NCBI GenBank assembly: GCA_026393755.1
Contig: JAPKZO010000019.1
Coordinates: forward strand, 1-64,000
Direction: 5' to 3'
Origin: Acidobacteriota bacterium
GTDB taxonomy: Bacteria > Acidobacteriota > Vicinamibacteria > Vicinamibacterales > JAKQTR01
Length of the DNA: 64,000 nucleotides
The position numbers were made by a program, and so were the translations under genes. Of this stretch, positions 2-18,574 are shown piece by piece. Position 1 is the first letter of the stretch; each line of letters starts with the position of its first letter. Under the pieces are notes generated by a model, which saw only the letters and a program-made list of their open reading frames with translations, searched no databases and had not been told where the DNA came from.

Positions 2-736
2 GTGGTCGCCCGCCATGACTTCTTGCCGTTTGGAGAGGAATGGAATCCGCCGGCGAACGCGAAAGAGAAGAAGCTCTTCACCGGTCATGAGCGCGACGCG
101 GAGACTGGACTCGACTACTTCGGCGCGCGCTACTACCGGCCCCAGGTCGGGCGATTCACCACGATCGACCCGGTCTACACCTGGTCGGAGAACCTCACCG
201 ATCCTCAGCGGTGGAACCGGTATGCGTACGCGAAAGACAATCCACTGAGGTTCATTGATACTGACGGCCGGTCCAGCATCGTATTCAACGGCAAGGACAA
301 TAGGCTGTACTTCTTCGACAAGGACGGCAACCTCATCGGCTCGTGGGACGCGACCAACAGGCCGTCCCCGGAACTTACAATCGGAAGACTTGCCGACGGT
401 GTGTACGACTTCCTAGACACTACGACAACCAGGGGATTCGGAGATGAGTCCCCAAACAGCAGACTTGGCACTTATGGGATCTTCGCCGTTGAGCCATTCA
501 TGGGGGAGGACGGAGGGATGCACACAGGTGTGGGAATCCACTCTGGCCGACTGAACAGGGGAGGGTACCTCTGGTGGACCAATGGCTGTATCCGAACGAC
601 GGACGAGGCCATGATGACGATCGCCTACACGGCGCCAAGTGACCCGTTGACGAGTTTGGCTGTTATCGATAACAGGCCTGCGAACATGGACTCGTTCGTA
701 CTTACTCAATTGGCCAAGATGAAGATAGCGTTCTAG
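2..736 (+). CDS. RHS-core protein, 3' part, with L,D-transpeptidase-like C-terminal tip
   Basis: This is the C-terminal end of an RHS/YD-repeat polymorphic-toxin-type protein; the frame is open to the left edge, so the 5' part is missing. Residues about 5-85 carry the RHS-associated core, with HDFLPFGEEW, FTGHERDAETGLDYFGARYY, VGRFTTIDP and WNRYAYAKDNPL. After the core, a separate domain (about 90-244) starts with FNGKDNRLYFFDKDGNLIGS and ends with GIHSG followed by WWTNGCIR. That is the H-x(n)-[ST]-x-G-C-I-R pattern of YkuD/DUF2778 L,D-transpeptidase folds, including the catalytic Cys. In the known Tlde1 effectors this fold attacks peptidoglycan in the periplasm. The inference is a cell-wall-targeting toxin tip. 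A long tail after the Cys motif is unassigned. The core is nearly the same as that of the protein at 2485-3522, while the tips are unrelated. Confidence 0.8.
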   Translation: MVARHDFLPFGEEWNPPANAKEKKLFTGHERDAETGLDYFGARYYRPQVGRFTTIDPVYTWSENLTDPQRWNRYAYAKDNPLRFIDTDGRSSIVFNGKDNRLYFFDKDGNLIGSWDATNRPSPELTIGRLADGVYDFLDTTTTRGFGDESPNSRLGTYGIFAVEPFMGEDGGMHTGVGIHSGRLNRGGYLWWTNGCIRTTDEAMMTIAYTAPSDPLTSLAVIDNRPANMDSFVLTQLAKMKIAF

Positions 737-919: not shown

Positions 920-1480
920 ATGGAGGTCACGGAAATGGCGTCACGGTTCACTGCAGCGGCGGCTGTTTCTGTGTGTCTCATGGCGCCACTGCCAGCGCAA
1001 CACCTCTCGAAGGAGCAGGTGTCACAGTCTCCTCCTGAACATGTGCTCTCCGAGATCGATATCGCCAGGACACGACCAGTGGATGTCGCGGCCAAGATAG
1101 GCGAACCGAGCCGCGCGGAAGTCTTCGCGGACGAGAAGTTCCCGGGATTGGACGCCAAGGACTACTGGTGGGAGACAGGGGAGGTCCGACTCCGAGCCGG
1201 AACACAGTTCGAGAAGCGGAATGGCAAGTTCGTTGAAACCGAGATTCGATTTGTGGATGTGTGGGGTAGCCGCCCGTCGAAGAACGGTCTTGGGATAACG
1301 GGAGCAGGGCTGGCCCTTGGGGATTCCGCTGACAAGGTCCGTCGATGCTACGGTTCGCGGCTTTCGATTGAGCCTTCACGTTTGATCGTACAGTGGAAAG
1401 ACGGTACGACGCTGACAATCGACACGGATCACAAAGGGCGCATCGTCCACATGCAGTTGGTGTCAGGTGAAGCATGGTAA
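920..1480 (+). CDS. Secreted hypothetical protein; candidate periplasmic immunity protein
   Basis: I do not recognise a family. The protein has 186 residues with a signal peptide (MASRFTAAAAVSVCLMAPLPA) and no further membrane segment, so it should be exported. The mature part contains VDVAAKIGEPSRAEVF and a basic C-terminal stretch with DGTTLTIDTDHKG, resembling a small alpha/beta protein. The start at 920 is chosen because GGGAG lies seven bases upstream; ATG at 935 would also leave a full signal peptide, and a GTG at 809 is in frame but adds an unlikely tail. It is the first gene after an RHS protein with a cell-wall-cleaving-type tip. A periplasmic toxin would need an exported immunity protein, so this is a reasonable candidate. 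That role is inference from position and export only. Confidence 0.65.
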   Translation: MEVTEMASRFTAAAAVSVCLMAPLPAQHLSKEQVSQSPPEHVLSEIDIARTRPVDVAAKIGEPSRAEVFADEKFPGLDAKDYWWETGEVRLRAGTQFEKRNGKFVETEIRFVDVWGSRPSKNGLGITGAGLALGDSADKVRRCYGSRLSIEPSRLIVQWKDGTTLTIDTDHKGRIVHMQLVSGEAW

Positions 1481-1498: not shown

Positions 1499-1832
1499 AC
1501 GCGTCCCGCCCTGCCAATAACTGCCCTACGAGAACCGTCGACCTTTGTCGCAGACGAGCTCGGCCCCGGCGCCCAACAGACCCAATACCCGAATGGCAAG
1601 CCGGACGGCGGCTTCACGCTCCCCTAATGGCTGAGACCTTGACGCTGGCGGACAACGGGTACGTCCGGAGCGTGCTCGCCAGAACGGGGCAGCTCCTACC
1701 GATGCTGACTTGAAAGCTCTTGGCCGAGTCGAACCCGCTAAACCGGCGCAGATAGGGGACGTGTACCTGTACAGACCGAAACCTCAGGATCCCCCGACAC
1801 CGGCCAAGAAGAGACGGGAGGAGGAGTCATGA
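1499..1832 (+). pseudogene. Remnant coding sequence broken across two frames
   Basis: No intact gene is visible between 1481 and 1828. One frame reads from about 1499 to a TAA at 1625-1627 and ends in YPNGKPDGGFTLP. A second frame opens after a TGA at 1632-1634 and reads 65 codons to a TGA at 1830-1832, including AKPAQIGDVYLYRPKPQD and a charged tail KKRREEES. The two stretches read like protein, and neither has a convincing start. The second frame's stop overlaps the ATG of the next gene as ATGA, which is typical of real coupled genes. The simplest reading is a decayed gene whose 3' end used to be coupled to the 1829 gene. Confidence 0.35.
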
Positions 1833-2488
1833 TACCGACCCGCACGCGACCGCTCACGTGGATGGCCGGTCTTGTTCTCGTCGCGGGGCTACCGATAGGG
1901 GGTGATGCCGTCGGCTCGGCTGGGCAACTGTCGAAGGGCATGCCAAGACCGACATTCTGGGTGGCCACGGGCCAGGACGGGGCGCCCACGTATGTGCTGT
2001 TCGCTCGCGGTTCAGAGCTTGTTCGGCTGGACGCCTCAACAGGGCGAGTCGCATGGCGAATAGAGTTGCCTTCGCCTGCGGACTTTGGCCCAGTAGTCGC
2101 CGCTGAAACCGCGTTGATCTTGGGCTGTGGAGGGGGATTCTGTCTCTACGGCGTCGACTCTCGAGATGGGAGTGTCCGTTGGACGAAGCATCTGTTGGAC
2201 GTGACTAATCGGTCCCGGCGGATGATAACAGATGGGGAGCGTATCTTCTTGGATGCGAGGCAGGACGAAGGCGTTGCTGCACTGAATCCTCAGAAAGGCT
2301 CAGTCGATTGGGAGCACACAGGCCTGAGAACAGGGTTTGTGAAGCCTCTCACCGTCGCCGACCACCGCCTGTTCACTGATGTGGGACTCCTCGACACGGC
2401 TACAGGGGGAGAAGTTCACTACTTTGGCCGGGACCCGGAGCCGCTGACGGGTAACCTGATCGCGTGGCACGTGGGAGGTGACCGATGA
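1829..2488 (+). CDS. Exported PQQ-like beta-propeller fragment protein
   Basis: This 219-residue protein begins with a signal peptide (hydrophobic WMAGLVLVAGLPIGG at residues 11-25). It then shows repeated outer-strand motifs of PQQ/quinoprotein-alcohol-dehydrogenase-like propellers: LDASTGRVAWRIEL, VDSRDGSVRWTK and LNPQKGSVDWEH. Only about three to four blades can be counted, fewer than the seven or eight of full propellers, so it is a short or truncated version. Catalytic residues of dehydrogenases are absent; a binding or structural role in the periplasm is more likely. ATG 1829 overlaps the end of a decayed frame, and its own stop overlaps the ATG of the RHS gene at 2485 (ATGA), so it is probably translated together with that toxin-like gene. 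Its role in the RHS unit is unknown. Confidence 0.65.
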   Translation: MIPTRTRPLTWMAGLVLVAGLPIGGDAVGSAGQLSKGMPRPTFWVATGQDGAPTYVLFARGSELVRLDASTGRVAWRIELPSPADFGPVVAAETALILGCGGGFCLYGVDSRDGSVRWTKHLLDVTNRSRRMITDGERIFLDARQDEGVAALNPQKGSVDWEHTGLRTGFVKPLTVADHRLFTDVGLLDTATGGEVHYFGRDPEPLTGNLIAWHVGGDR

Positions 2489-3522
2489 GCCGCGGACTGT
2501 TCGCCACGATCAGTCGCGTTCTCGCGGACGCAGGGGTCACCCGCGCTGTTCGCGCCACCTCGCCGGCCCCGCGGCGGCGGCAAGCGGCTCACGATCTCGT
2601 GACAGCCGGTTTCCTCATCGTGGCGGCGCTGCTGCTGCCAGCACCGGCGTTCGCGCAGTCGGGGCAGATCGTCGAGTACTACCACCTCGACGCGCTGGGG
2701 TCCGTGCGTGTCGTGACCGATCAGACGGGGCAGGTCGTGAGCCGCCACGACTTCCTGCCGTTTGGGGAGGAGTGGCCCGCGCCCCAACCCACGACGAAGG
2801 AGAAGAAGCTCTTCACGGGCCACGAGCGCGACGCGGAGACTGGACTCGACTACTTCGGCGCGCGATACTACCGGGCCAGCGTCGGGCGATTTAGCACGGT
2901 CGACCCCGAACTGAGCGTCAAAGAAGCAGTGGTCGATCCGCAGCGCTGGAACCGATATGCCTACGTCACGAACAATCCCCTGAAGTACACGGATCCCGAC
3001 GGCAAGAACCCGCTCTTGATCACCGGAAGCATTGGGGCGGCCGTCTACGGCGGGTGGGCGATCTACGAGAACGTCTCGCACGGGAGAGCGCCGCTAAGTG
3101 GCAACGTCGGATTCGAGGCGGCCAAGGGCTTCGTGGTCGGGGCCACGCTGGGCATAGCGGGGCCAGCATTTGCGGGAATGGGGGGCGCGGAGACTGCTCT
3201 GGCGGGATCGGCGACCGCGACCGGTACCGTCGTGATTGGCAGCTACCCTCGATACCTGGAGCTTGCACGGGAGTTGGGAGCCAAGTCGTTCAATATCCCT
3301 AGGAGTATCTGGGAGAAGATGTCTGAGGCCCAGCAATTGGCGGCGAATGACAAGTTTCTGGACCGTGCGATCTCTCGGGGGCAGACCTTCATTGTGACAA
3401 TGAACGTGGCTGACGCTCTTAAGAAGGGTGGAGTGTGGCTGCGACACGAAATCGACTACCTCATGGCTCGTGGGTATACCATCGGGTCGGATGGGCGAAG
3501 CCTAATACCGCCGGCGAAGTGA
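2485..3522 (+). CDS. Short RHS-core protein with its own signal peptide and a variable C-terminal tip
   Basis: The 345-residue protein has an N-terminal hydrophobic segment (LVTAGFLIVAALLLPAPAFA, about 38-57) that looks like a cleavable signal. It goes straight into one RHS unit (YYHLDALGSVRVVTDQTG) and the core (RHDFLPFGEEW, HERDAETGLDYFGARYY, VGRFSTVDP). The long run of YD repeats found in normal RHS proteins is absent, so this is a stripped-down RHS carrier. The tip has a glycine/alanine-rich hydrophobic linker (about 173-245) and a final ~90-residue domain with ELGAKSFNIPRSIWEKMS, NDKFLDRAISRGQTF and LRHEIDYLMARGYTI. I have the impression of similar endings on other polymorphic toxins but cannot name an activity. 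It is coupled to the preceding propeller gene (ATGA) and followed after 11 bases by a small gene that may give immunity. Confidence 0.75.
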   Translation: MSRGLFATISRVLADAGVTRAVRATSPAPRRRQAAHDLVTAGFLIVAALLLPAPAFAQSGQIVEYYHLDALGSVRVVTDQTGQVVSRHDFLPFGEEWPAPQPTTKEKKLFTGHERDAETGLDYFGARYYRASVGRFSTVDPELSVKEAVVDPQRWNRYAYVTNNPLKYTDPDGKNPLLITGSIGAAVYGGWAIYENVSHGRAPLSGNVGFEAAKGFVVGATLGIAGPAFAGMGGAETALAGSATATGTVVIGSYPRYLELARELGAKSFNIPRSIWEKMSEAQQLAANDKFLDRAISRGQTFIVTMNVADALKKGGVWLRHEIDYLMARGYTIGSDGRSLIPPAK

Positions 3523-3533
3523 TCGCCCTCAGA

Positions 3534-3869
3534 ATGGAAACAACCTTGCCCAGTGATGCAGAAATCAGTACGGCGTATTTTGAACAGCTCGCTCGACTGT
3601 CCAAGAAGCTGAGCGACGACGGCATCGCGCTGTACAGTCATCGCTACGACGCCCTCTCTTTTGGATCGTGGGTGGTTGACGCTGGAACTCGGCACAGGCG
3701 TGTCCGAGTGACGTACGACGGTCGGGAAGGCCTGCTGCTGTTCGAAGACGCCGTCGTGAATTCGAATTCGTCAGCGACTGAGTGGCGGGAGCGGGAGAGC
3801 CAGGTCCTTAAGCCTACGGCTGCGTGGGAGCGGGCGAGGGAGGTAATTGTCAGGTCCTGCCGGTCTTGA
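3534..3869 (+). CDS. Small hypothetical protein; candidate immunity partner of the RHS tip
   Basis: I do not recognise a family. From ATG 3534 the protein has 111 residues, is soluble and has no signal peptide. It contains helical segments (EISTAYFEQLARLSKKLSDD) followed by strand-rich sequence (ALSFGSWVVDAG, VRVTYDGREGLLLFED) and a basic C-terminal helix ending in VIVRSCRS. A GTG at 3519 overlaps the stop of the RHS gene as GTGA and is an equally possible start that would couple both genes. A cytoplasmic partner directly after an RHS tip is the normal place for an immunity gene. That is the only evidence for the role. Confidence 0.6.
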   Translation: METTLPSDAEISTAYFEQLARLSKKLSDDGIALYSHRYDALSFGSWVVDAGTRHRRVRVTYDGREGLLLFEDAVVNSNSSATEWRERESQVLKPTAAWERAREVIVRSCRS

Positions 3870-16671: not shown

Positions 16672-16690
16672 CGCCGAGAGGAAGGCTGTG

Positions 16691-18574
16691 ATGTCGATGG
16701 GCCGCCAAGAATCGTCACGTCGCCGGATGACACAAGCAGGCCTGCTGGCCATGCTGGTGGCAGGCGCGGCGCTGCTGGTCTCACCCCTGCATGCCACCGG
16801 CGACGGCGTCGCTGGAGCACGGCTGGTCGGCGTGTCGACCCGGGTTGAGGGTCGCGCGACCGCGGTGGTGATCGAGACCAGCGCCCCGGTCGCCTACGTG
16901 GCCGCGCAGCCGGATCCCCTCACGCTGCTGGTTGATCTGCGCAATGTTACGACCGGATCATCGCCGTTCGTGGCGAAACCGACCGGAATGCTCGCTGACC
17001 TGCGCGTCCAATCCGTGCAGGCCGACGACGGCGCCCCGTTGGCCCGCATCAGGTTGACGCTCGCCAAGCCGGGCAAACCGACCGTGCGCAGCCGGTGGAA
17101 CACCGTGATCGTCGAGTTCGGCACCCGGCTCGGTGATGCCGCCCTCGCGCCCGCAGTCGCGGGCCCGGATCCGGCGTCCGCCGTACCGCAGAGCGTGGGC
17201 TCCGCCCCGTCCTCCCTCGCGCGGGCCGAGACGACTCCCGCAGCGGCCGTCGTGGCGGTCCCCCCGGCCACCGCGCCGGCTCCCTCCCCGATGACACAGG
17301 CCGATCCGTCGGCTCAGGGCGCGAAAAAGTACACGGGCCACCTCATCAGCCTCGATTTCCAGCAGGCCGACCTGCGAGCGGTCCTCCGCAGCTTCACAGA
17401 AATCAGCGGCCTCAATGTCATCGTCGATCCCAGCATCAATGGGACCGTTGATGTCGTCTTGAAAGAGGTCCCGTGGGATCAGGCGCTCGAATACATCCTC
17501 AAGGCCAACAAGCTGGGTTACGCCATCGAGAACAACGTCGTCCGAATCGCGCCGCTCGCCGTGCTGGCCGAGGAGGAAACGGCACGACAGAAGCTGAAGG
17601 ACGCCCAGGCCATGTCGGGCGAGCTGAAGGTGCTGACCAGGACGTTGAGTTACGCGAAGGCGGCTGATCTGCAGGCGCTGGTGAAGAAGACGCTGACCCA
17701 GCGTGGCGACGTTCAGATGGATCCGCGCACCAACACACTGATCATCAGTGACCTGCCGGCGGCGCTCGAGCAGGTGGGGCAGTTGCTCACGACACTGGAT
17801 CGCCCTGAGCCACAGGTGGAAGTCGAAGCTCGCATCGTCCAGACATCTCGCGACAGCGCCCGGGCCCTCGGCGTCCAGTGGGGCTTGTCGGGCAAGGCCG
17901 TGCCGCAGCTGGGCAACACCACGCCGCTGACGTTCCCGAACCAGGTCGCGCTCGAAGGCCGGGGTGGGGATAAGTCGCAGACCGCGCAGGGCGGGACGCT
18001 CGCCAACGCCGTCAACCTGGGCGCCGCCGGCGCCACCACGACGCTCGGCTTGGCGATGGGATCGGTCACGGGCGCTTTCAACCTCGACGTGGCGCTTTCC
18101 GCGCTGGAGCGGAAGGGCAGTGCCCGCGTGCTCTCGTCACCCCGCGTCATGATGCAGAACAACTACGAAGCCGAGATGACGCAGGGCGTCCAGATCCCAA
18201 TCCAGACTCAGGCGAACAACACGGTGACCGTCACGTTCAAGGACGCGGCGCTCACGCTGAAAGTCCGGCCGCAGATTACCGCGTCGAACACCGTCATCAT
18301 GGACGTCAAGCTCGAAAACGCCTCGGCGGACTTCTCGAAAGCCGTCAACGGCATTCCCCCGATCAACACGCAGCGCGCCTGGACGCAGGTGCTTGTCAAC
18401 GACAACGACACCATTGTCATCGGCGGCATCGTCATCAGCCAGGAGCAGACGCAGAACGACAAGGTGCCGCTCATGGCGCGCATTCCGCTTCTCGGGTGGC
18501 TGTTCAAGCGCGACACGTTTTCCGACGAGAACCGTGAGCTTCTGATTTTCATCACGCCGCGGATCCGCCGGTAG
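16691..18574 (+). CDS. pilQ: Type IV pilus secretin PilQ
   Basis: PilQ forms the outer-membrane channel through which the pilus passes. The protein has 627 residues. A signal peptide lies at about 17-35, and a peptidoglycan-binding AMIN domain at about 40-125 (VSTRVEGRATAVVIETSAPV, LTLLVDLRNV). A Pro/Ala linker follows. The STN/N0 domain is near 215-280 (ISLDFQQADLRAVLRSFTEI, VDVVLKEVPWDQALEYILKA), then an N1 domain. The secretin domain follows (VEARIVQTSRDSARALGVQW, LEKKGSARVLSSPRV-type sequence, IVIGGIVISQEQ, VPLMARIPLLGWLFKRD). It ends with the canonical ELLIFITPRIRR. ATG 16691 follows GTG 16688; GAGAGGAAG upstream is the ribosome-binding site. Confidence 0.96.
   Translation: MSMGRQESSRRRMTQAGLLAMLVAGAALLVSPLHATGDGVAGARLVGVSTRVEGRATAVVIETSAPVAYVAAQPDPLTLLVDLRNVTTGSSPFVAKPTGMLADLRVQSVQADDGAPLARIRLTLAKPGKPTVRSRWNTVIVEFGTRLGDAALAPAVAGPDPASAVPQSVGSAPSSLARAETTPAAAVVAVPPATAPAPSPMTQADPSAQGAKKYTGHLISLDFQQADLRAVLRSFTEISGLNVIVDPSINGTVDVVLKEVPWDQALEYILKANKLGYAIENNVVRIAPLAVLAEEETARQKLKDAQAMSGELKVLTRTLSYAKAADLQALVKKTLTQRGDVQMDPRTNTLIISDLPAALEQVGQLLTTLDRPEPQVEVEARIVQTSRDSARALGVQWGLSGKAVPQLGNTTPLTFPNQVALEGRGGDKSQTAQGGTLANAVNLGAAGATTTLGLAMGSVTGAFNLDVALSALERKGSARVLSSPRVMMQNNYEAEMTQGVQIPIQTQANNTVTVTFKDAALTLKVRPQITASNTVIMDVKLENASADFSKAVNGIPPINTQRAWTQVLVNDNDTIVIGGIVISQEQTQNDKVPLMARIPLLGWLFKRDTFSDENRELLIFITPRIRR

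What the first reader, a model, noticed from the sequence alone, without database searches (positions are those of the whole stretch)
2..736. RHS protein with an L,D-transpeptidase-like toxin tip
After the RHS core comes a domain with GNLIGSWDAT-like sequence and the H...TNGCIR catalytic signature of the YkuD/DUF2778 fold. Tlde1 effectors with this fold attack peptidoglycan, but they are usually type VI secretion effectors; here the fold is delivered as an RHS tip. The tail after the Cys motif is unassigned.
Basis: partly seen in the sequence, partly recalled or inferred. Interest (0 to 1): 0.55.

Follow-up and report, generated by a model that had tools for sequence, protein, structure and literature searches.

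The report
RHS-borne cell-wall-attacking toxin cassette
The start of this window holds the tail of a bacterial weapon gene whose tip is folded like enzymes that rebuild the bacterial cell wall, followed by a gene that may protect the producer; such toxins were predicted in 2012, but the short, exportable carrier seen in its sister genes is unusual.

Summary
Window 2-736 encodes an RHS C-terminal core (TIGR03696, 71.6 bits) followed by a YkuD (L,D-transpeptidase) domain: Pfam E 1.7e-4 for the tip (just under Pfam's cut-off), a model matching B. subtilis YkuD at Z 13, His180 and Cys196 conserved. The gene is cut by the contig end; its start is not seen. RHS toxins with L,D-peptidase tips and linked immunity were predicted by Zhang et al. 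2012, so the concept is not new. Added here: (1) related tips sit on RHS proteins in several phyla and beside Hcp/TssD; one Hcp-linked and two RHS-linked copies share one family of exported-type partner; (2) 11 of 12 downstream partners have a signal-like start at the threshold used (12th just below; 9 of 46 control ORFs), the window's included, but the window's partner has no toxin-linked homologue; (3) the second His of (S/T)HGC is replaced in 9 of 9 tips, a change that abolished Tlde1a toxicity although exchange chemistry survived; (4) six sister genes with visible starts are mini-RHS proteins: signal-like start plus C-terminal plug, no shell. No T6SS sheath gene was found. Most likely a periplasm-acting antibacterial toxin cassette; delivery unknown.

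The parts
2..736 (+). 3' part of a mini-RHS/RHS toxin gene, cut at its 5' end by the contig end
26..268 (+). RHS-associated core (C-terminal plug), TIGR03696
   Evidence: 74.1 bits
257..268 (+). end-of-plug motif, here Asp-Thr-Asp-Gly; sister units A, B, C, D, F and H have Asp-Pro-Asp-Gly
   Evidence: translations; motif role from PMC8636562, passages
254..733 (+). toxin tip with YkuD / L,D-transpeptidase fold (Pfam match nt 278-634; structural matches about aa 82-235)
539..541 (+). predicted active-site His180
   Evidence: aligned with the His of an Acinetobacter L,D-transpeptidase (weak hit, E 0.45)
587..589 (+). predicted nucleophile Cys196 in TNGCIR
935..1480 (+). candidate cognate immunity protein with signal-like N-terminus (ATG at 920 or 935, about 200 nt behind the toxin stop)
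   Evidence: position; hydropathy 2.10; no NCBIfam family and only a chance-level Pfam match; homologues elsewhere not toxin-linked
1829..2488 (+). PQQ/BamB-like repeat ORF whose last ~48 nt before the next start are shared with the upstream ends of five sister units
2485..3522 (+). sister mini-RHS unit H: signal-like N-terminus, plug, different tip
3534..3869 (+). gene behind unit H (frame open from 3435), no hydrophobic N-terminus

Best explanation
The ORF is the C-terminal part of an antibacterial polymorphic toxin. Its RHS core carries a YkuD-fold tip that, once in the periplasm of a target cell, attacks the peptide stems of peptidoglycan by cysteine chemistry (Cys196 with His180), cutting at or exchanging the residue after the third stem position. 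The next gene (935-1480) encodes an exported protein that protects the producer in the periplasm. Shown: RHS core, YkuD fold, conserved His and Cys, partners with signal-like starts in relatives, and sharing of one toxin-partner module between RHS and Hcp-linked settings. Inferred: catalysis, substrate, toxicity, immunity, and that the missing 5' end encodes the same start-plus-plug segment as the sister units. The usual second His of (S/T)HGC is absent, so the balance of carboxypeptidase, exchange and cross-linking activity should differ from Tlde1a; exchange or carboxypeptidase action is my guess, not shown.
For: YkuD match of all 8 aligned tips, window included, at E <= 1. Model of the ORF: pLDDT about 80 over aa 91-220 (dip to 51 at 141-150; whole-model mean 64.0, pTM 0.61), with Csd6 Z 13.9 over 129 residues and YkuD Z 12.9-13.0, rmsd 2.5 over 113. 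RHS core by TIGR03696. The partner of the Hcp-linked tip L048 is homologous to the partners of the RHS tips L036 (blastp E 8.9e-27) and L037 (1.9e-15), and these tips are about 40% identical. 11 of 12 downstream partners (9 behind YkuD tips, 3 behind DUF5675-type tips) reach hydropathy 2.0 in the first 40 residues (the 12th 1.97), against 9 of 46 control ORFs. In the same genome a sister unit pairs Tox-REase-5 with Imm52, which supports the toxin-immunity reading of the array. Tlde1a chemistry: PMC9638812, passages.
Against: The window tip alone falls just below Pfam's YkuD cut-off. In Tlde1a the change H129A, the position replaced in this family, kept D-amino-acid exchange in vitro, yet the paper reports that every tested variant except D40A lost toxicity in E. 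coli. The window's partner has no hit better than E 0.55 to any other tip partner (one phmmer score of 0.33), and its homologues in 386 genomes (2 genomes besides its own) stand beside a gene I read by eye as trpG, not beside a toxin. The gene's start is not seen. Partners of sister units B and C also have hydrophobic starts, so this is not special to the YkuD tip. Start codons were chosen by me for some partners (L037, window, L040_i5), while controls used their first ATG/GTG. Three sister units are broken or truncated, so this unit could be decaying too. No activity can be tested here.
Confidence: 0.72

Rival explanations
1. A silent orphan cassette: a displaced RHS tip with no delivery of its own, kept as a donor for recombination into a full-length RHS gene.
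For: Arrays of short RHS pieces with variable tips and some broken members; shared stretches upstream of the units mark recombination; orphan rhs-CT genes are known (PMC3967940, passages).
Against: Orphan rhs-CT fragments usually lack translation-start signals and the one studied also lacks export signals, whereas 6 of 6 sister units with a visible 5' end have an ATG and a hydrophobic N-terminus. dN/dS over that segment is 0.24-0.57 in 15 of 15 pairs (gene conversion not excluded). The DNA search found no match in the only long RHS frame, on contig C5, so that gene is an unlikely recipient.
Confidence: 0.25
2. A domesticated cell-wall enzyme: the exported mini-RHS L,D-transpeptidase modifies the producer's own peptidoglycan and is not a weapon.
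For: The fold is that of housekeeping enzymes and a signal peptide would place it in the producer's periplasm.
Against: Not found in the other 192 class genomes searched; on a carrier that elsewhere in the genome bears unrelated tips; relatives are Hcp/TssD-linked. The genome has two other YkuD genes over the cut-off.
Confidence: 0.1
3. A catalytically weak, dead or binding-only YkuD domain on a decaying toxin.
For: The (S/T)HGC histidine is missing, loss of which abolished Tlde1a toxicity, and some sister units are broken.
Against: His, Cys, the Gly before Cys and the Arg two places after Cys are invariant in 8 of 8 aligned tips; the same His is missing in the two Hcp/TssD-linked copies, which also have exported-type partners; H129A Tlde1a kept exchange activity in vitro.
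Confidence: 0.13

Closest known systems
[quoted passage not shown] 2012, PMC3482391; section 18 read)
   Same: RHS core followed by an L,D-peptidase/YkuD-fold tip and a linked candidate immunity gene.
   Different: Shell not seen here: the gene is cut, and sister units with visible starts have only the plug behind a signal-like start.
Tlde1/Tldi1 T6SS effector-immunity pairs (PMC9638812, passages; Sibinelli-Sousa 2020 not held)
   Same: YkuD-fold thiol enzyme with periplasmic-type immunity; a relative of this tip sits beside Hcp with a partner of the same family as two RHS partners.
   Different: No second His in (S/T)HGC in 9 of 9 tips; Tlde1_dom matches 1 of 8 tips, not the window; no TssC found in this genome.
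Predicted Salmonella PgP2-type T6SS candidate (PMC10469887, passages)
   Same: Small predicted L,D-transpeptidase (122 aa) in a two-gene unit with a 147-aa protein that has a signal peptide.
   Different: T6SS-encoded, no RHS core mentioned; not compared by sequence here.
Housekeeping L,D-transpeptidases and carboxypeptidases (B. subtilis YkuD, H. pylori Csd6)
   Same: Same fold, Z 13-14, with His and Cys.
   Different: Here on an RHS core, and sporadic in distribution.
Orphan rhs-CT modules (Koskiniemi et al. 2014, PMC3967940, passages)
   Same: Short RHS core pieces with a toxin tip and an immunity gene.
   Different: Those usually lack start signals, and the studied one lacks export signals; sister units here with visible 5' ends have both.
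SitA lipoprotein toxins (PMC5562445, passages)
   Same: Exported polymorphic toxins with variable C-termini and cognate immunity, with no apparent need for a dedicated export machine.
   Different: Different N-terminus; SitA has a lipobox and moves by outer-membrane exchange, neither shown here.

Membership tests
YkuD / L,D-transpeptidase fold | YkuD beta-sandwich fold | tested here: met
   Z 12.9-13.9 for the top three rows, covering about aa 82-232 of a predicted model
YkuD / L,D-transpeptidase fold | Pfam gathering score PF03734 (23.4) reached by the window sequence | tested here: not met
   21.3 and 22.6 bits; relatives L048 27.8 and L038 29.0 reach it
YkuD / L,D-transpeptidase fold | conserved His and nucleophile Cys | tested here: met
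   His180 and Cys196, invariant in 8 of 8 aligned tips; distance in the model not measured
YkuD / L,D-transpeptidase fold | transpeptidase or carboxypeptidase activity | not testable with these tools
   needs muropeptide analysis
Tlde1 effector family | motif (S/T)HGC with the second His | tested here: not met
   N, N, L, L, N, C, L, L, M in the 9 tips
Tlde1 effector family | Pfam Tlde1_dom match | tested here: not met
   no match for the window tip at E <= 1; 1 of 8 tips at 3.7e-4
Tlde1 effector family | a T6SS in the producing genome, tested by the sheath gene TssC only | tested here: not met
   no TIGR03355 match in the own genome, control E. coli rings; relatives in other genomes lie beside Hcp/TssD
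Tlde1 effector family | capping subdomain | not tested
   no coordinates available
RHS polymorphic toxin | RHS-associated core before the tip | tested here: met
   TIGR03696 71.6 bits, cut-off 32.5
RHS polymorphic toxin | YD-repeat shell enclosing the tip | tested here: inconclusive
   gene cut at contig end; none seen by reading the 6 sister units with visible 5' end
RHS polymorphic toxin | variable tips on a shared core | tested here: met
   sister units share the core and differ in the tip, apart from F and H, which are alike
RHS polymorphic toxin | cognate immunity gene directly downstream | tested here: inconclusive
   a gene with a signal-like start lies downstream, but no homologue links it to a toxin elsewhere
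Orphan rhs-CT module | usually no start or export signal of its own | tested here: inconclusive
   not testable for the cut window gene; 6 of 6 sister units with visible 5' end have both, while unit D lacks the signal-like start

The most novel reading that the evidence does not exclude
The window gene belongs to a shell-less, T6SS-independent class of RHS toxin: a Sec-exported 'plug-only' mini-RHS protein of about 340 residues, in which the old C-terminal plug has become a small carrier for exchangeable tips. Its YkuD tip, naturally lacking the second His of (S/T)HGC, would be an exchange-biased enzyme that poisons peptidoglycan by swapping D-amino acids rather than by cutting or cross-linking, and the same toxin-immunity module moves between this carrier, full RHS shells and T6SS tubes across phyla.
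Probability: 0.25. Interest if true: 0.62.

Novelty: new member of a known kind. Interest (0 to 1): 0.42.

Why it matters
The toxin concept is known, but the comparison shows one peptidoglycan-attacking toxin-partner module in both RHS and Hcp-linked settings across phyla, gives a candidate exported immunity family shared by Ralstonia, an Acidobacteriaceae genome and an Hcp locus, and points to a short exportable RHS carrier whose delivery route can be tested. [quoted passage not shown] The missing motif His, which Tlde1a needs for toxicity, sets a clear biochemical question.

Tried and rejected
Searches that found nothing: PHROGs for the tip; viral contigs; single-sequence PDB search, only two weak unrelated hits; genome contigs with the single tip. 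The tip profile against PDB sequences gave at best E 0.45, for an L,D-transpeptidase, so the fold claim rests on Pfam and on the model. The lists shown do not name Tlde1a; that absence is not used. The window's candidate immunity protein folded alone gave pLDDT 42.5, so no fold search was made with it. Its homologues in two other genomes are not toxin-linked, so an immunity link by family could not be shown for the window pair. Two of the four hits (L049, L050; about 20 bits) were dropped: L050 carries an ordinary SSGCVR-type motif, and L049 was not resolved. In some searches only up to 8 candidates a genome were scored, so those counts are lower bounds. L066 is an RHS core plus YkuD plus SH3 of another subgroup, keeps THGC, and was not added to the 9 tips. 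The tip of unit 5 in L040 matches DUF5675 only weakly. TssC was not found; other T6SS genes were not searched in the own genome. A type II route is undecided, since the 5 secretin hits lie below the gspD cut-off. Literature: searches listed no paper I recognised as describing a plug-only signal-peptide RHS toxin; only CC-licensed PMC papers are held, and most were seen as listings.

Full report
What is there. The frame 2-736 is open from the first bases of the window, and window base 1 is base 1 of contig C19 of a 4.43-Mb, 42-contig genome. The gene is therefore cut and the GTG at base 2 is not evidence of a start. Residues 9-89 match the RHS-associated core TIGR03696 with 71.6 bits. Residues 93-211 match Pfam YkuD with E 4.4e-4; the tip alone gives 1.7e-4 and 22.6 bits, just below the curated 23.4. 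Window bases 1-141 are identical to C37:65873-66013.

Fold. AlphaFold2 with six aligned sequences gave pLDDT about 80 over aa 91-220 (one block of 51 at 141-150) and low confidence for the plug; the whole-model mean is 64.0 and pTM 0.61. Foldseek's best 36 rows are nearly all named as L,D-transpeptidases or relatives such as Csd6-type enzymes, 5 of them at E <= 0.001, with low TM-scores over the whole 244 residues. VIA-align 2 gives Csd6 Z 13.9 (rmsd 2.9, 129 residues) and B. subtilis YkuD Z 12.9-13.0 (rmsd 2.5, 113 residues). The matches reach aa 222-235, so most of the 'unassigned tail' is the end of the fold plus a helix.

Relatives. Of 396 genomes of the phylum, 4 including the own have the tip; of 193 of the class, only the own; of 398 in the phylum of the Ralstonia genome, 4 at E <= 0.001 including that genome, two of them weak; of 395 in the phylum of the Tannerella genome, 2 including that genome. 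One plasmid record of 72,556 has it (Persicobacter). Named loci came: Acidobacteriaceae palsa_246 (L036, containing the DNA of L031 of G084), Ralstonia sp. NFACC01 (L037), Tannerella (L038) and Ca. Saccharicenans (L039). G084 is listed as same phylum as the window, so the host is inferred to be an acidobacterium. The patchy spread fits horizontal transfer.

Vehicles. The tip ends long RHS frames in G176 (1771 aa), Ralstonia (1844 aa open frame) and Persicobacter (1872 aa, open at the record end). It ends short RHS frames in Acidobacteriaceae (332 aa) and Saccharicenans. In Tannerella it follows two TssD genes. In G920 a stand-alone 156-aa tip lies directly behind an Hcp gene (TIGR03344, 149.8 bits). 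The tips L036 and L037 are about 40% identical to the Hcp-linked one (E 8e-30, 1e-27), while the window tip is 30% identical to it (E 3e-16).

Partners. The genes directly behind the Hcp-linked tip and behind the RHS tips L036 and L037 encode homologous small proteins with signal-like starts (blastp E 8.9e-27, 1.9e-15, 6.6e-19). So the same toxin-partner module occurs in both settings. Of 12 downstream partners tested, 9 behind YkuD tips and 3 behind DUF5675-type tips, 11 reach a mean hydropathy of 2.0 in a 12-residue stretch of the first 40 residues and the 12th reaches 1.97; 9 of 46 control ORFs of the window do. This is a crude stand-in for a signal-peptide predictor, and I chose the start codon for L037, the window gene and L040_i5. 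In the Saccharicenans contig five short RHS units alternate with five such partners, with a sixth RHS piece at the contig end. Units 1 and 2 match DUF5675 clearly and unit 5 weakly, units 3 and 4 are YkuD tips, and the partners group mostly the same way (i1, i2, i5; i3, i4), with weak cross-hits (the best phmmer, i4 with i1, E 0.0013). The window's partner (935-1480) has the signal-like start but no accepted family, no significant hit to the other partners (best E 0.33) and no toxin-linked homologue; its immunity role is inferred from position.

Own genome. TIGR03696 rings at 10 places, 8 over the cut-off. One is in a 2813-residue frame on C5, whose start I read as SpvB/Tc-type by eye only. 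The rest are short units on C22 (A-D), C37 (E, F) and C19 (G = window gene, H). Six of six units with a visible 5' end (A, B, C, E, F, H) start with an ATG and carry a hydrophobic stretch followed by A-Q-S-G-Q. Published structure work places the C-terminal plug in the last about 95 residues of the shell, with two DPLGL motifs, the second holding the catalytic Asp (PMC8636562, passages); the sister units keep the plug, and I see no shell in them. dN/dS over the start-plus-plug segment is 0.24-0.57 in 15 of 15 pairs, which suggests constraint on protein, though gene conversion is not excluded. B carries a stop in the plug, D lacks the start, and E changes frame at the very point where identity to the window ends, which may be an assembly effect. 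Unit H shares only about 48 nt upstream of its ATG with the five others, which share longer stretches with each other; the join lies inside the tail of a PQQ ORF. Partners of D (Imm52), F and H lack a hydrophobic start (0.35-0.68), that of A is intermediate (1.62), those of B and C have one. Of 20 genomes searched as relatives, own included, 2 have RHS cores: the own and one of the same order; the same-genus genome has none.

Mechanism. The family keeps His and Cys but has N, L, C or M where Tlde1a has His129, in 9 of 9 tips. In Tlde1a, H129A kept full exchange with D-Leu, about half of the carboxypeptidase products and little cross-linking in vitro (PMC9638812, passages). The same paper reports that every tested variant except D40A lost toxicity in E. 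coli, so exchange alone may not be enough to kill, or this family compensates for the missing His; Hcp/TssD-linked copies lacking the His still keep exported-type partners. I expect an exchange or carboxypeptidase poison of peptidoglycan, with that doubt. How the protein leaves the producer is open: no T6SS sheath gene was found, and secretins lie below the gspD cut-off.

What is known. Zhang et al. 2012 state that polymorphic toxins with an L,D-peptidase domain have RHS repeats and linked immunity proteins. The finding is a member of that kind. The shell-less exportable carrier and the shared partner family are the parts I did not find described in searches.

Noticed in passing
L040 1-9818 (Ca. 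Saccharicenans contig, G224:C18): Five short RHS units in a row, two clear and one weak DUF5675 tip and two YkuD tips, each followed by a partner with a signal-like start; DUF5675 may be another L,D-transpeptidase-like toxin tip.
   Followed up: partly
L025 975-2128 (C22 of own genome): Sister unit D, lacking the signal-like start, with a Tox-REase-5 tip followed by Imm52, a clear toxin-immunity pair.
   Followed up: yes
L028 2622-11057 (C5 of own genome): A 2811-aa frame with an RHS core and a start that looks SpvB/Tc-like by eye; not analysed further.
   Followed up: no
window 2437-2488: The last ~48 nt before the mini-RHS start at 2485 are shared with five sister units although the gene upstream is different here, marking a recombination join.
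   Followed up: partly
L066 2656-3834 (G960): RHS core with a different YkuD tip that keeps THGC, and a C-terminal SH3 domain.
   Followed up: no
window 16688-18574: Secretin ORF that looks like a type IV pilus PilQ by eye; only a sub-cut-off gspD match was computed.
   Followed up: no
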